The translations under genes were made by a program, and so were the position numbers. From Neonectria sp. B-13 (Eukaryota > Ascomycota > Sordariomycetes > Hypocreales > Nectriaceae): a stretch of DNA of 64,000 nt. Under the pieces are notes generated by a model, which searched no databases, had not been told where the DNA came from, and worked only from the letters and a program-made list of their open reading frames with translations. Shown piece by piece: positions 9,895 to 42,670 of this stretch. The stretch is taken from contig NOKP01000005.1 of the NCBI GenBank assembly GCA_002682825.1, forward strand, positions 1,674,001-1,738,000, in the 5' to 3' direction. The first letter of the stretch is position 1; every line of letters begins with the position of its first letter.

Positions 9895-12800
9895 CTACTC
9901 ACCGCTCAATTCCTTAGCAATCCTTCGCAAGGCCTCTTCAAACCCAGCAAACCACTCCTCGATCCTCTCCCGATGCAGCAAATGCTTGCTGTACAGCACA
10001 GAGATACTGAGCCTCCCCTTCGCCACACCCGCAAGAACTTCAAACAGCGCATACCTCTGCGCTTCAGCCGCTGAGGGGGGATTGATATCGAACAAATTTG
10101 CTCCTTTCACGTCTTTGTCATCCTCGGTGCCGAGGCTAGTAGTGCTGCTGCTGCTCTTGTTGGCCATTCTCGACAGCGAAGTGATCTCGAAGAACGAGTC
10201 GTCGCGCTCGAGCTGCTGGTACACGCCGCCGTAGTTGAAGACGATTTCGGCGGGGAGTTGGTTTTGCACAAAGGACTGCGCGGACTGTGGCGTGGCGAAT
10301 TGTGAGGTGAAATACGCGGCGCCGTTGTCTGGGGAGGACTGGGTAGACATGGTGTCGTGTGTTTGGGCGATGAAGTCGAGTAGCCCATTTCGTTGTTGCT
10401 GTACGATGGTGATGCTGGGATCAATGTGGATTGGATACAGCGTGGTAAACCAACCCACTGTCCTTGACAGGTCCATATCCAGCGACTCGTCCCACGTCCC
10501 GCGACCATGTCCTTCGTTGAAAATGGTCGGTAGCGTTCTGTCCTTGAATGTCTGGCCAAAGGAGAATAGCAACGCTGAAATCATCAGCTCTATGGGCTTC
10601 GTACCCAAGGCGTCGTTGCAGGCTCCCAAGATGGCCTTTGTGGTTTCTTCGTCGATAGAGAAGGCCAAAGTGGTCGAGTCGGCGTCCAGACTCTCGTCAA
10701 AGGTGTTGTTGGTCCAGTACGAGATCTGTGCTGGTGGAAGGGCAAGCGGCTGTTGGCGGGCTGCGGTGAGCTCTCCGGCGCGCTGGGCTTGAAGCAATGA
10801 CCAGGTCCGGAACGATGTCGTTGGCGGCGCCAGTGCCACCTCAGCGGCAGGGTCTGACGTGAATAATGTCTCTAGGTCGCCGAGGATGATGCGCCAGGAA
10901 ACCAAGTCCACGACAAGATGGTGGACTGTTATGAAGAGCGTCTGGTCACCGTCTACTTCGAACAAGACGGCCGCAACCAGAGGGCCGGTTGTGATGTCCA
11001 AGCTGGCTCGCTGGTGCTGAATGAATGATGCAACCTGCTCATAGTCGGAACACGTCTGGGATATGCAGCGGAATGCATCCTCTGCAGATTGTGTTATGAG
11101 CTGCTCCCAGTTTCCAGCATCGTCCTGTCTGAAACGGGCGCGAAGGATCGGATGCGCGGTGACGGTTTTGTTGAGGGCGGACTTGAGCAGAGACTGGGTG
11201 ATGGGTGTTTTTGGTCGAAGGTAGAAGAATTGGTCGAAGCAGACTCTAGAGTTTGGTTGGTGGAGGAAAAACATTTGCTGGATGGGCGCCAAAGCGATGG
11301 TCTTGTTGTGATCGTTGTCGTTGTCGTGGCTGTTATCATCTTCGTCCTGTCCATGTCCATTTATATGTGGTGCAGCATCTCGGTCGTCAACACTGCAGGC
11401 CTCCAATACCCGACTGATTGTCTTGAGGCGAGTTATTCTTCCTGTCGAGATATTCAACCCCTGGAGACGTGCAGCAGACGATAGCTGCATAGCAGTGATC
11501 GAATCACCACCAAGCTGAAAGAAACTATCATCGAGTCCGATACTGGTCGTGTCAACGTTGAGCACTTTTCCGATGATCTTGCACAATGTTTTCTCGATAT
11601 CCGTCGAAGGTGGTCGCTTCTGGGCCCCTTCGGCCCGTCGCAGGGTGGCAAGTTGCGCAACGGAAAAGGATGAGCCAGCCTCGCGCAGCTTCTTGCGGTC
11701 CGTCTTACCCGAGGTGTTCAGGGGTAGCTCGTCGACGACAAACCACACGGATGGCACCATGTAATTCGGCACCAGCTCGGAGAGCTGAGCCTCAACCGTC
11801 ACAGGAACGGGGAGGATGCCAATATTCACTCCACTCTGCGTCTTGCTGAATGACACGACCGCATCGTTACTGCTCAGTACCACGAACGCCGCCAGAGCTG
11901 GGTTCGCGCCCTCGCCAACGGGCGTGATGATCTCAGCCACGACCTGAAGAGCCTCGGGGCGGCACTGTAGCACCGATGCCTCCACGCCGGCAAGCTCCAC
12001 ACGTTGTCCTCGGATCTTGACCTGTGAGTCCTTACGACCGATATAGTTGAGGCTACCATCGGGGTTGTAGGACACCAGGTCGCCAGTCTTGTAGAGTCGG
12101 CCATGGCGCCCAGAGTCACCCTGTACGCCACTGACCCCTTGCGCGAGCCAGGGCGGAGTATCGATGAACACGGCGTCAGTTGTTGCCTGATCGTGGAGAT
12201 ATGACCTTGCCAGGATATGGCCCTCGATGAGAAGCTCTCCAACAGCCCCTATGGGAAGTAGTTTGCTGTGGTCGTCTGGGTCGACGACCCAGCTTGTCCC
12301 CCCTGTAGCTGTGCCAATGCAGCCAGACTGGGTCTCCATCGATGTGTTGAATTCAATGCTTGCAACACAGCAGAGCACGGCGCACTCTGTCGGACCATAT
12401 CCATGCAATATTGTCTGCCCTGGTCGTGACCAACATTGGAAGTCCTGGAACCTTGACGCTTCTCCCGCCAACATGAGGGTCTTCAACCCGGGAACGCTTG
12501 TAGGCTCGATCAGCTTTGCAACTGAGGGTGTGAGGTACGCAGTATTGATGTCCATCTTTTGGATGCTCTGGGCGAGGTTGTTCCGCAGGTCGTATTCAGA
12601 TGGAATACACACGGTGCCGCCGTAAACCAGAGTGGTGATGATCTCCTGGATCGAGGCGTCAAAGGCGTAAGAAGCAAACTGTAACACCCTCGAAGTCTTT
12701 TTCAGCCCAATGGACAGACCGTGGTGCGAGCAACTTGTCGCCACGGCGCGGTGTTCGAGGACAACACCCTTAGGCTGACCGGTACTGCCAGACGTGAAAA

Positions 12801-41700: not shown

Positions 41701-42670
41701 TCTTATTCATCAGGTGGTTCACGTAGGTCCTGAAGGGAGGCAGGTCATTGACCTCGTTCCCGTGGTAAAATTGGCTGAAGACCTCTTGTATCCGGGGGAG
41801 AGCAACCCGATCATACAGGGCGTGGTGAACCGTCCACACGAACGACACACCATTCTGCTCTTCGTCGCGTATTAAGGCGTATCTAGCCAAAGGTCGCCCA
41901 AGGTCCATCGTCTTGGCCCTGTCATCTTTGATGTACGTGTCGAAATTGTGGCCGTGAACCCACGAAATGTTCTCGTTCACCACCACCTGCAGAAATCCGA
42001 GGGTGTCATGCTGGACGATACGGGTTCGCAGTATCGGGATGGCTTTGGAAGTTTGCTCCCATGCCTTTTGAAAGCGATCAATGTCGACCGCTGTCGCCAA
42101 CTCCATTCTGTTTTGAAGAACATAATCGTCCTGGCTCTTCGACGTCAACGCGAGCAAGCCCTCCTGTAATGGAGTACAGGGGTAGATGTCCTCGACGCGT
42201 TCGCTCTGAACGCAGCACATGCTTGCCACTTGCAAGATGCATTGTTGGACGTCGAATTTGCTGGAAATCAGCGAGAATGGCCCGACGTCTGCGTTGGATG
42301 CCACTTGAGCAGGGACGTATGGCAGTTGTGCCATCCGAGCCAATGTGGGATACAGAAAGACTTGCTCCACGGGAAGCATGAATCCAGCTTCCAATGCCAC
42401 ATTTGAAAGCCGTGTGGCAGCAAGAGAGTCGCCGCCGAGCTGGAAAAAGTTGTCGTTTTGGGTGATGGTATTTTCTTGGATTTGGAGAACATGTGCCCAT
42501 AGCTGGGCGAGATTGAACAAAACTCCAACCGTTTGGTATCGTGCCTTTTTTACCCCGTTCCCATTCAGATGGGATGGGATCAGTAGGGATGACGCCATGT
42601 TTCGTAGTGCTTCGCAGTCAATTTCTCCCGCTGTTGGGAAGAAAGTGGAATGCGGTGTGTTGTGTTTCAT
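9895..42670 (-). CDS. Giant NRPS, eight modules, alternating epimerases, one in-frame TAG
   Basis: Minus strand, four exons: 42670-33119, 33044-25071, 24978-16891, 16827-9895; all three introns are phase 0 and the exons total 10,849 codons. Order: A10 stub-T0-C1-A1-T1-C2-A2-T2-E2-C3-A3-T3-C4-A4-T4-E4-C5-A5-T5-C6-A6-T6-E6-C7-A7-T7-C8-A8-T8-E8. All eight A domains keep FTSG(S/T)TG, TGD and the A10 lysine; all nine T domains keep GGDS (Ser 82, 1187, 2284, 3853, 4941, 6498, 7591, 9196, 10314). All C and E domains keep the second His of HHxxxD(G). The enzyme would activate eight amino acids and epimerise residues 2, 4, 6 and 8. There is no TE, terminal C or reductase. Codon 2618 is TAG, which would truncate the protein after T2 inside E2 unless read through, edited, or a sequence error. 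A TATA-like TATAAG (minus strand, 42747-42752) lies 77 bp upstream. Divergent from an acyltransferase gene and close to an ABCC exporter. Confidence 0.9.
14745..18220 (-). other. NRPS module 7 (C7-A7-T7)
   Basis: Post-epimerase C7 with NHAIIDG, split by a 63-nt phase-0 intron (16828-16890; donor GTAAGT) between YDPSE and YGISVRA. A7 is of the FTSGTTG / CTPTSTIND subtype otherwise found only in A2; hand-read code DANDIGCPTK. T7 NFFRLGGDSLRAM (Ser9196). Expected L residue. Confidence 0.7.
18225..22890 (-). other. NRPS module 6 (C6-A6-T6-E6)
   Basis: C6 has QHSIYDG: the first His of HHxxxDG is Gln, but the second, catalytic His is kept. A6 hand-read code DATLLGLVIK, close to A4. T6 SFLRLGGDSITAMQ (Ser7591). 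E6 complete, with HHLVVDLVSWR, NEGHGREVW and RTCGWFTTL. Expected D residue. Confidence 0.7.
22900..26290 (-). other. NRPS module 5 (C5-A5-T5)
   Basis: Post-epimerase C5 with NHAIVDG, interrupted near its end by a 92-nt phase-0 intron (24979-25070) between GVDPSE and YAISIQA. A5 hand-read code DSMFIGGVFK, resembling A3 but with Ser at the second position. T5 NFFRLGGDSVAAM (Ser6498). Expected L residue. Confidence 0.7.
26295..30915 (-). other. NRPS module 4 (C4-A4-T4-E4)
   Basis: C4 has HHALYDG. A4 has FTSGSTG and hand-read code DAFLLGLVIK, close to A6, with a hydrophobic pocket that suggests an aliphatic or aromatic residue. T4 is SFVRLGGDSITAMQ (Ser4941). E4 is complete: HHLVVDLVSWR, NESHGREVW, RSVGWFTTLYP, MFNYGG. 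Expected D residue. Confidence 0.7.
30930..34330 (-). other. NRPS module 3 (C3-A3-T3)
   Basis: C3 follows an epimerase and has the DCL-like motif NHVIVDG. It is split near its end by a 74-nt phase-0 intron (33045-33118; donor GTGAGT, ACTAAC branch, CCTAG acceptor) between GVDPND and YSISVRV. A3 has FTSGSTG and hand-read code DAMFIGAIFK, similar to A5. T3 carries NFFRLGGDSIAAM (Ser3853). Expected L residue. Confidence 0.7.
34340..38990 (-). other. NRPS module 2 (C2-A2-T2-E2), interrupted in E2
   Basis: C2 has HHALYDG. A2 belongs to a different A-domain subtype (FTSGTTG, GPSECTPTSTIND) shared only with A7; hand-read code DAILIGAPTK. T2 has the epimerase-linked form SFLRIGGDSITAMQ (Ser2284). 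E2 has HHLVVDLMSWR and NESHGRE, directly followed by the in-frame TAG; beyond the stop the same frame resumes with DDSLDL and the rest of a normal E domain. If intact, it would yield a D residue. Confidence 0.7.
34817..34819 (-). other. In-frame TAG within epimerase E2
   Basis: On the coding (minus) strand, GTC TAG GAC: codon 2618 of the NRPS. The reading frame is continuous on both sides, with no indel. At the same position after HGRE-V/G-x, epimerases E4, E6 and E8 have TGG (Trp). On the plus strand this is CTA versus CCA in the sisters, one C-to-T change at a CpA step. No plausible intron (GT...AG) removes it. Confidence 0.9.
39005..42283 (-). other. NRPS module 1 (C1-A1-T1)
   Basis: C1 resembles the LCL-type C domains of the even modules, but its active-site motif is HHALYDR, with Arg where HHxxxDG has Gly. 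A1 has FTSGSTG and a hand-read ten-residue binding code of DAALMAGVLK; Asp at the first position means an alpha-amino acid. T1 carries NFFRMGGDSIMAM (Ser1187). There is no E domain, so an L residue is expected. The closest binding code in this protein is that of A8. Confidence 0.7.
42317..42634 (-). other. NRPS start: degenerate A10 stub and loading T0 domain
   Basis: Residues about 13-118. The chain opens with TAGEIDCEALRNM, which aligns with the A10 end of an adenylation domain (sister modules read SGKTDRKKLR) but has Glu in place of the catalytic Lys. It runs into a complete carrier domain, NFFQLGGDSLAATRL, with Ser82 as phosphopantetheine site. The rest of the ancestral A domain is gone, and no A-domain sequence appears upstream on this strand. 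T0 must therefore be loaded in trans or be vestigial. Confidence 0.75.

What the first reader, a model, noticed from the sequence alone, without database searches (positions are those of the whole stretch)
9895..42670. NRPS predicted to make a strictly alternating L/D octapeptide
Seen: epimerase domains occur in modules 2, 4, 6 and 8 and in no other, and the C domains after each epimerase have an NHxxVDG-type motif distinct from the HHALYDG-type of the others. Known: E domains set D configuration and post-E C domains accept D donors. Inference: the product alternates L-D-L-D-L-D-L-D. That geometry favours beta-helical pores (gramicidin) or, if cyclised, stacking nanotubes. I know of no fungal octapeptide with this pattern, but cannot search.
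Basis: partly seen in the sequence, partly recalled or inferred. Interest (0 to 1): 0.88.

Follow-up and report, generated by a model that had tools for sequence, protein, structure and literature searches.

The report
Fungal alternating-chirality peptide assembly line, interrupted
A fungus carries a giant enzyme laid out to build an eight-residue peptide of alternating left- and right-handed amino acids, probably capped at its start by a small helper enzyme borrowed from fat synthesis, but this copy has a stop codon in the second module and a group of relatives lacks that flipping step, so the strict alternation is the likely ancestral plan rather than a safe prediction.

Summary
The domain reading is right: on the minus strand, 42670-9895 encodes T0 and eight C-A-T modules with E domains in modules 2, 4, 6 and 8 only. 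The strict L-D-L-D-L-D-L-D forecast is only partly supported. E2 is cut by an in-frame TAG (34817-34819). Of 7 N-terminal relatives, 1 has E2 intact, 5 lack it yet keep a post-E-type C3, and 1 is unclear. Best model: the acyltransferase primes T0, giving an N-acylated octapeptide, ancestrally alternating, released in trans. Alternation itself has a precedent, the cyclic hexapeptide fusahexin. No product is known; pores or nanotubes are untested.

The parts
9895..42670 (-). Eight-module NRPS gene (coding exons with three introns; interrupted by an in-frame stop in E2)
   Evidence: ORFs, domain scan, Pfam, introns
42296..42514 (-). T0, free N-terminal carrier domain with intact GGDS
   Evidence: present in 7 of 7 N-terminal relatives examined
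40952..42211 (-). C1, LCL-clade condensation domain (HHALYDR) that would join the T0-bound starter to residue 1
39287..40891 (-). A1
38981..39199 (-). T1
37628..38887 (-). C2 (LCL clade)
35993..37570 (-). A2; pocket differs at 6 of 10 code positions from 5 of 5 relatives' A2 rows examined
35690..35911 (-). T2, pre-E type carrier (GGDSITAM)
34370..35644 (-). E2, epimerization domain interrupted by an in-frame stop
   Evidence: the two halves are 72% and 69% identical to the intact relative P0083
34817..34819 (-). in-frame TAG stop codon within E2
33122..34222 (-). C3, post-E (DCL-type) condensation domain, part before the intron
33045..33118 (-). intron in C3
31200..32831 (-). A3
30933..31124 (-). 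T3
29592..30821 (-). C4 (LCL clade)
27942..29534 (-). A4
27657..27860 (-). T4
26328..27602 (-). E4, intact motifs HHLVVDLVSW and NESHGR
25074..26192 (-). C5, post-E (DCL-type), part before the intron
24979..25070 (-). intron in C5
23182..24741 (-). A5
22906..23097 (-). T5
21532..22779 (-). C6 (LCL clade, QHSIYDG)
19906..21474 (-). A6
19615..19818 (-). T6
18277..19563 (-). E6, motifs HHLVVDLVSW and NEGHGR
16993..18120 (-). C7, post-E (DCL-type), the piece used in the tree (the exon runs on to 16891)
16828..16890 (-). intron in C7
15025..16614 (-). A7
14725..14943 (-). T7
13351..14625 (-). C8 (LCL clade)
11668..13284 (-). A8
11371..11589 (-). T8
9940..11319 (-). E8, terminal domain; no TE, R or CT follows
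   Evidence: C-terminal end conserved in 5 of 5 relatives
43417..45120 (+). Stand-alone acetyl/acyl-transferase domain of fatty acid synthase beta (Pfam SAT, FAS_N), divergent from the NRPS; proposed loader of T0
   Evidence: start inferred from the length of relatives
45539..50305 (+). ABC transporter gene in several ORFs; possible exporter, cluster membership not tested

Best explanation
A Nectriaceae-type fungal assembly line built from duplicated two-module units (C-A-T, C-A-T-E). Shown: the domain order, the post-E clade of C3, C5 and C7, the free T0, the divergent stand-alone FAS-beta acetyltransferase domain, the terminal E8, and the stop inside E2. Inferred: (1) the acyltransferase moves an acyl group, most simply acetyl from acetyl-CoA, onto T0; (2) C1 joins it to residue 1; (3) modules 1-8 add eight residues, with E4, E6 and E8 (and E2 where intact) turning each second residue to D and C3, C5, C7 taking D-donors; (4) the chain on T8, ending in a D residue, leaves through an enzyme in trans. 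The ancestral product would be an N-acyl (L-D)x4 octapeptide. In the sequenced copy the stop in E2 should halt translation inside module 2, so this copy is probably not productive unless the codon is an assembly error or is read through.
For: Domain scans. C-domain tree: 11 post-E domains (3 of the window, 8 of four other NRPSs of the genome) form one side of a branch at 96/84*; C1, C2, C4, C6, C8 form a clade at 100/98* elsewhere. The references include a gene with the layout A-T-E-C-A-T-C-A-T-E-C-A-T-C-A-T-E-C-T-C, whose five modules and E positions fit the D/L residues given for fusahexin. Pre-E carriers T2, T4, T6 and T8 share GGDSITAM, T0, T1, T3, T5, T7 do not. E4, E6 and E8 keep HHLVVDLVSW and NE(S/G)HGR. 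T0 is present in 7 of 7 relatives and C1 keeps HHxLYDR in 5 of 5 examined. The neighbour matches a solved FAS beta chain (4v58_G, residues 41-541, E=2.8e-109; top hit 7q5s_B, residues 21-559, E=3.3e-118, labelled as a dehydratase chain of 2,122 residues). It ends where 16 of its 17 nearest relatives end, and the GHSQG and PFH motifs stand in 25 of 25 aligned rows. It lies next to an NRPS relative in Fusarium sp. DS 682 (consecutive tags IL306_013809/013810, both with contig length 56,869), and probably on a second contig (both 81,273). Precedent for T0 loading: the T-C-A-T start of GLNRPS4, modelled on emericellamide (passages of PMC3672099). Terminal E: 5 of 5 relatives.
Against: No product, expression or biochemistry. 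The TAG in E2 breaks the reading frame. Five of 7 relatives (86-92% alike among themselves, so perhaps one loss) lack E2. C1 belongs by descent to the LCL clade; no reference starter clade was in the tree, so its donor could be an L-aminoacyl rather than an acyl group. Same-contig evidence for the acyltransferase covers 2 of the 7 N-terminal relatives. No thioesterase or other likely release enzyme was named by Pfam in 36 frames of the window and of 20 kb on either side; the only amide hydrolase, an amidase frame, lies about 16 kb beyond the window's right edge. Comparison with solved structures does not separate the two kinds of C domain.
Confidence: 0.6

Rival explanations
1. The gene is a recent pseudogene: the stop in E2 ends translation inside module 2 and nothing is made. 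(The rivals overlap, so their odds do not sum to one.)
For: In-frame TAG. In the intact relative P0083 the reading frame runs straight through the matching stretch, so the stop is not in a conserved intron.
Against: The frames of the rest of the 33 kb are open apart from the three introns, and both halves of E2 (72%, 69%) are as conserved as the whole exon (68%) against P0083, so there is no sign of long decay. The second copy in the assembly mirrors the first exactly in the stretch compared, which does not include the stop, and is not independent.
Confidence: 0.4
2. The stop is an assembly or sequencing error, and the synthetase makes the full alternating octapeptide.
For: The assembly has clear artefacts: matches on this contig recur in mirror-image positions over its whole length. 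No other break in the gene, and a close relative is intact.
Against: Other very long NRPS frames in this genome are open (11,567 and 12,012 aa), so the consensus is accurate in general.
Confidence: 0.35
3. The product is L at residue 2 (L-L-L-D-L-D-L-D): E2 is dispensable and is lost or broken more than once, as with the truncated E of the second module in fusaoctaxin synthesis.
For: Five relatives lack E2 but keep T2 of the pre-E type and a post-E-type C3. Fusaoctaxin precedent (PMC6563249 passages). The A2 pocket differs in the window.
Against: A stop, unlike a deletion, would also remove modules 3-8. C3 in the E2-less clade keeps the post-E type, which might instead mean that A2 is fed a D-amino acid.
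Confidence: 0.25
4. T0 is loaded with an amino or carboxylic acid by a separate A-T enzyme, as NRPS9 does for NRPS5 in fusaoctaxin; the acyltransferase belongs to another pathway.
For: A two-protein start is known in Fusarium (PMC6389888 and PMC10967133 passages). C1 is of LCL descent.
Against: Pfam named no AMP-binding domain in the 36 neighbouring frames scanned; the acyltransferase is divergently transcribed and next to the NRPS in at least one other species.
Confidence: 0.25
5. E8 hands the chain to a second NRPS protein in trans, so the peptide is longer than eight residues.
For: Bacterial COM docking parts co-occur with E domains (abstract of PMC12402864). Other NRPS genes exist elsewhere in the genome.
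Against: The protein ends 14 residues after the E8 match, leaving little room for a docking tail, and no second NRPS was named in the 36 neighbouring frames scanned.
Confidence: 0.12

Closest known systems
NRPS4 / fusahexin synthetase (Fusarium graminearum)
   Same: Alternating D and L residues; the post-E C domains of a gene of this genome with a fitting layout join the same clade as C3, C5, C7.
   Different: Five modules and a cyclic hexapeptide. The look-alike gene here starts with A-T-E, has E in modules 1, 3, 5 and ends in C-T-C; its identity as NRPS4 was not tested by sequence.
NRPS5/NRPS9, fusaoctaxin A (Fusarium graminearum)
   Same: Octapeptide, rich in D residues, separate priming step; one paper describes a truncated E in the second module.
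   Different: E in five successive modules, not alternating; primed by an A-T protein; ends in a reductase.
Emericellamide and pneumocandin synthetases
   Same: N-terminal T-C-A-T start in which a carrier is thought to take an acyl group brought by an acyltransferase (PMC3672099 passages).
   Different: The pneumocandin acyltransferase is described as like cholesterol acyltransferases and works with an acyl-CoA ligase and a PKS; here it is a FAS-beta acetyltransferase domain, and no PKS or ligase was named in the frames scanned.
Fungal fatty acid synthase beta subunit, N-terminal acetyltransferase domain
   Same: 43417-45120 aligns to residues 41-541 of a solved FAS beta chain; GHSQG and PFH motifs kept. 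That this part is the acetyltransferase domain is recalled, backed by the Pfam SAT and FAS_N matches.
   Different: Stops after this domain; 44% identical to the genome's one other match, a frame of 1,759 aa.
Linear gramicidin synthetase (recalled)
   Same: Alternating L/D, capped N-terminus.
   Different: Fifteen residues, formyl cap by an F domain, reductase release; bacterial.

Membership tests
Multimodular fungal NRPS | A, T and C domains in repeated modules | tested here: met
NRPS with E/DCL alternation (works like fusahexin synthetase) | E in every second module | tested here: met
   (E2 interrupted)
NRPS with E/DCL alternation (works like fusahexin synthetase) | C after E belongs to the post-E (D-accepting) clade | tested here: met
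   tree, 96/84*; second tree with relatives, 100/99*; solved structures uninformative
NRPS with E/DCL alternation (works like fusahexin synthetase) | all E domains intact | tested here: not met
   TAG in E2; E4, E6, E8 motifs intact
NRPS with E/DCL alternation (works like fusahexin synthetase) | product with alternating D and L residues | not testable with these tools
   needs LC-MS and Marfey analysis
NRPS4 (fusahexin) orthologue | five modules | tested here: not met
   eight modules; another gene of this genome has five with a fitting E pattern
T0-primed lipopeptide synthetase (emericellamide, pneumocandin type) | N-terminal T-C-A-T | tested here: met
T0-primed lipopeptide synthetase (emericellamide, pneumocandin type) | acyl-CoA ligase and PKS in the cluster | tested here: inconclusive
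   none named by Pfam in 36 frames of the window and of 20 kb on either side; 18 of the 34 flank frames of at least 150 aa were scanned, the rest read by eye
T0-primed lipopeptide synthetase (emericellamide, pneumocandin type) | acyl group on the N-terminus of the product | not testable with these tools
   no product
FAS beta acetyltransferase domain | homology over the domain, Ser and His motifs | tested here: met
Fungal cyclic-peptide NRPS | terminal CT condensation domain | tested here: not met
   ends in E8, which lies in the E clade
Fusaoctaxin synthetase NRPS5 | E in modules 3-7 and terminal reductase | tested here: not met

The most novel reading that the evidence does not exclude
A fungal assembly line primed by a fatty-acid-synthase acetyltransferase domain that broke free and now loads an N-terminal carrier of an NRPS, making an N-acetyl (or N-acyl) alternating L/D octapeptide whose last residue is D and which is released by an enzyme in trans; such a capped D,L peptide could stack or form pores. 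The line is under evolutionary editing at module 2, where the substrate pocket has changed and the epimerase is lost or broken, so that relatives form a natural series for asking how a D-accepting C domain copes when its epimerase goes.
Probability: 0.3. Interest if true: 0.72.

Novelty: new variant of a known kind. Interest (0 to 1): 0.5.

Why it matters
If true, it would add another way to prime a fungal NRPS (a FAS acetyltransferase domain acting on a free T0) and a fungal line that ends in an epimerase without a release domain. The E2-plus and E2-less relatives with the same post-E-type C3 make a long-standing question testable: how strict is the chirality gate of a DCL domain, and can an assembly line drop one epimerase and keep working? 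The acyltransferase or NRPS hits come from Neonectria, Dactylonectria, Fusarium, Verticillium and unnamed metagenomes.

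Tried and rejected
Solved structures as judges of LCL versus DCL: rejected. Most chains matched well carry C domains that follow an E (for PvdL and BacC, E8 matches the same chain just before the C match; recalled for surfactin, tyrocidine and microcystin synthetases), and bit scores for C1 and C8 overlap with those for C3, C5 and C7 (C6 was not searched).

Naming the amino acids from the A-domain codes: codes were read, but no reliable fungal key was at hand, so no residue is claimed.

Gene conversion of A2 from A7: considered because the pockets share features. 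Rejected as recent, since W_A2 groups with the relatives' A2 at 100/100* and DNA similarity to A7 is patchy (DNA part). Against a simple history: within A2 the window's row lies outside P0083, whereas for C1 and C3 the two are sisters.

The stop in E2 as part of an intron: rejected, because the intact relative P0083 runs through this stretch in one frame.

Alternation by chance: not favoured; duplicated two-module units fit better (three introns at one homologous place; A3/A5 paired 94/92, C4/C6 paired 99/67, both short of the starred level). A1/A8 and A2/A7 resemblances show that the history is not a plain tandem repeat.

Literature (open-access PMC library only): searches. In the listings shown (for, 10 of 94) I saw no fungal octapeptide with this strict alternation, no FAS acetyltransferase beside an NRPS as starter loader, and no E-terminated fungal NRPS; two searches returned nothing. 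Opened: passages of PMC6563249, PMC6389888, PMC3672099, PMC4237347 and PMC8949500, passages and one section of PMC10967133, the abstract and outline of PMC12402864. The other papers were seen as listings only, and subscription papers are not held, so absence from print is not shown.

Full report
WHERE IT IS. The window lies on contig C72 of a 60.9 Mb assembly in 123 contigs. The nearest relatives of a neighbouring gene are from Neonectria (83%), Dactylonectria (78%) and Fusarium (75% and less), so the organism is most likely a member of Nectriaceae; the species is not known. On this contig matches recur at p and 1984374-p, the contig being 1,984,373 bases long, and 2,301 of 2,301 bases agree in the one mirror stretch compared. 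This looks like an assembly artefact, so the second copy is not independent evidence.

THE OBSERVATION. Five long minus-strand frames cover 42688-9895. A scan with profiles built from the window's own domains gives T0-C1-A1-T1-C2-A2-T2-E2-C3-A3-T3-C4-A4-T4-E4-C5-A5-T5-C6-A6-T6-E6-C7-A7-T7-C8-A8-T8-E8. Pfam agrees independently: 8 AMP-binding, 9 PP-binding and 13 Condensation stretches over the five frames, the last being 8 C and 4 E with E2 in two pieces. The breaks between frames are introns of 74, 92 and 63 bases at the same place in C3, C5 and C7 (picked among the candidates for that reason), except one: at 34817-34819 an in-frame TAG stands inside E2. The motif difference is real: NHVIVDG, NHAIVDG, NHAIIDG after E, against HHALYDR, HHALYDG, HHALYDG, QHSIYDG, HHAVYDG in C1, C2, C4, C6, C8.

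ARE C3, C5, C7 OF THE D-ACCEPTING TYPE? A tree of 62 C and E domains, 12 from the window and 50 from eleven other NRPS regions of the same genome (3 further matches under 300 aa were dropped), puts all 11 rows known to follow an E (3 of the window, 8 from four other NRPSs) on one side of a branch with support 96/84*. One further row shared that clade, the first C fetched of the C38 gene; more DNA showed that it too follows an E, so the 12 rows of the clade are all post-E. C1, C2, C4, C6 and C8 form a clade (100/98*) among domains that follow a T. The C38 gene reads A-T-E-C-A-T-C-A-T-E-C-A-T-C-A-T-E-C-T-C, which fits the five modules and the D, L, D, L, D/L residues described for fusahexin synthetase NRPS4. 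Its identity as NRPS4 was not tested by sequence, but as a layout it ties the clade to known chemistry. No biochemically proven LCL or DCL sequence was in the trees, and solved structures did not help.

WHAT BREAKS THE STRICT FORECAST. First, E2 is interrupted. Seven N-terminal relatives of 61% identity or more were examined among the 120 listed of 4,027 hits. The closest, P0083 (68% identical, 3,182 aa), has T-C-A-T-C-A-T-E-C in one frame without a stop: an intact copy exists. E2's two halves in the window are 72% and 69% identical to it, as conserved as the rest of the exon, so the stop is either young or an error. Second, five of the seven (P0091, P0093, P0094, P0095, P0097; 86-92% alike over their first 2,200 residues) go from T2 straight to C3 with no E between. 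Their T2 keeps the signature of carriers that precede E, and their C3 groups with the window's C3 (100/100*) inside the post-E clade. The simplest history is one loss of E2. The seventh (P0096, Fusarium sp. DS 682) also lacks E2, but that may be its gene model. Third, the window's A2 code reads DAILIGAPTK, while five of five relatives' A2 rows read DGQLNGNVNK (three of the five are near copies), although A2 is orthologous along its length (69% overall, 75-80% in the bins around the pocket). The code positions are recalled and were anchored on motifs. Module 2 is thus the changing part of this assembly line.

Before C1 stands a free carrier, T0, with an intact GGDS, present in 7 of 7 N-terminal relatives; C1 keeps HHxLYDR in 5 of 5 checked. 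About 750 bases away and divergent lies 43417-45120. It matches Pfam SAT and FAS_N and, among solved structures, FAS beta (4v58_G residues 41-541, E=2.8e-109; the top hit 7q5s_B, residues 21-559, E=3.3e-118, is labelled as a dehydratase chain), that is, the N-terminal acetyltransferase part alone (domain limits recalled). The genome's one other match, a frame of 1,759 aa, is 44% identical. Of the 82 proteins found among 7,996 scored, P0001-P0017 are 48-83% identical; 16 of these 17 end at the same place and the other is a partial record. GHSQG and PFH stand in 25 of 25 rows aligned (the window and 24 of the 82 hits). In Fusarium sp. DS 682 the two genes have consecutive tags and equal contig lengths (56,869), and a metagenome pair shares the contig length 81,273; for the other five N-terminal relatives no such sign was seen. 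At the other end, the line stops with E8, and five of five relatives that cover this end (P0203, P0204, P0205, P0212, P0283; 66-72%) stop there too, P0204 with a gap in its E8. E4 was not examined in relatives; E6 was seen in P0204 (in part) and P0285.

NEIGHBOURS. Pfam on 36 frames (18 of the window outside the NRPS, and 18 of the 34 frames of at least 150 aa within 20 kb on either side) named no thioesterase, PKS, AMP-binding or second NRPS domain; the other 16 flank frames were read by eye. An amidase frame lies about 16 kb beyond the window's right edge; nothing ties it to the cluster.

HOW IT PROBABLY WORKS. The acyltransferase charges T0, most simply with acetyl; C1 passes it to residue 1; eight residues follow, with D at 4, 6 and 8 and, where E2 is intact, at 2. 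Loading of a first carrier by an acyltransferase has precedent in the models for emericellamide and pneumocandin, though with different enzymes. Release in trans from a terminal D residue is known in bacteria (surugamide type, recalled). In this strain the stop probably prevents the product. Shown are the anatomy, the clades and the conservation; loading, chirality of the product and release are inferred.

HOW NEW. Alternating D/L fungal peptides exist (fusahexin), and D-rich fungal octapeptides exist (fusaoctaxin), where a truncated E in the second module is said to explain an L residue. Not seen in the ten literature searches are the FAS-acetyltransferase starter gene, the E-terminated end and the E2 loss series. 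I rate it a new variant of a known kind.

Noticed in passing
contig C72 (window included); also C38 and C36, and partly C50 and C105: NRPS matches recur in mirror-image positions (the two positions sum to contig length + 1 for C72, C38, C36; to another constant for C50 and C105), which looks like an assembly artefact that inflates genome size and doubles gene counts.
   Followed up: partly
G000:C38:319221-341414: Five-module NRPS with a layout that fits fusahexin synthetase.
   Followed up: partly
G000:C39:814744-850665 and G000:C50:819511-852966: Two similar giant NRPSs (12,012 and 11,567 aa frames) with gaps of about 430 aa near the end of several A domains, as N-methyltransferase inserts would give, and a terminal C that groups with the C38 gene's last C: cyclosporin-synthetase-like in layout (family name recalled).
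   Followed up: no
G000:C34:396550-413492: NRPS with an E in each of several successive modules, like the layout of fusaoctaxin's NRPS5; one TAG was counted in one of its C matches.
   Followed up: no
window 35993-37570: A2 substrate pocket differs at 6 of 10 code positions from a code identical in five relatives' rows, although its flanks are conserved.
   Followed up: partly
window 51759-55213: NPHP3-type NTPase part (Pfam NPHP3_N) and WD40 repeats in adjacent minus-strand frames, a NOD-like receptor-type gene by layout (type recalled).
   Followed up: no
window 55219-56568: RelA/SpoT-domain protein in a fungus, beside the NOD-like gene.
   Followed up: no
L010:3581-4063 (minus): Amidase frame about 16 kb beyond the window's right edge, the only amide hydrolase named in the frames scanned.
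   Followed up: no
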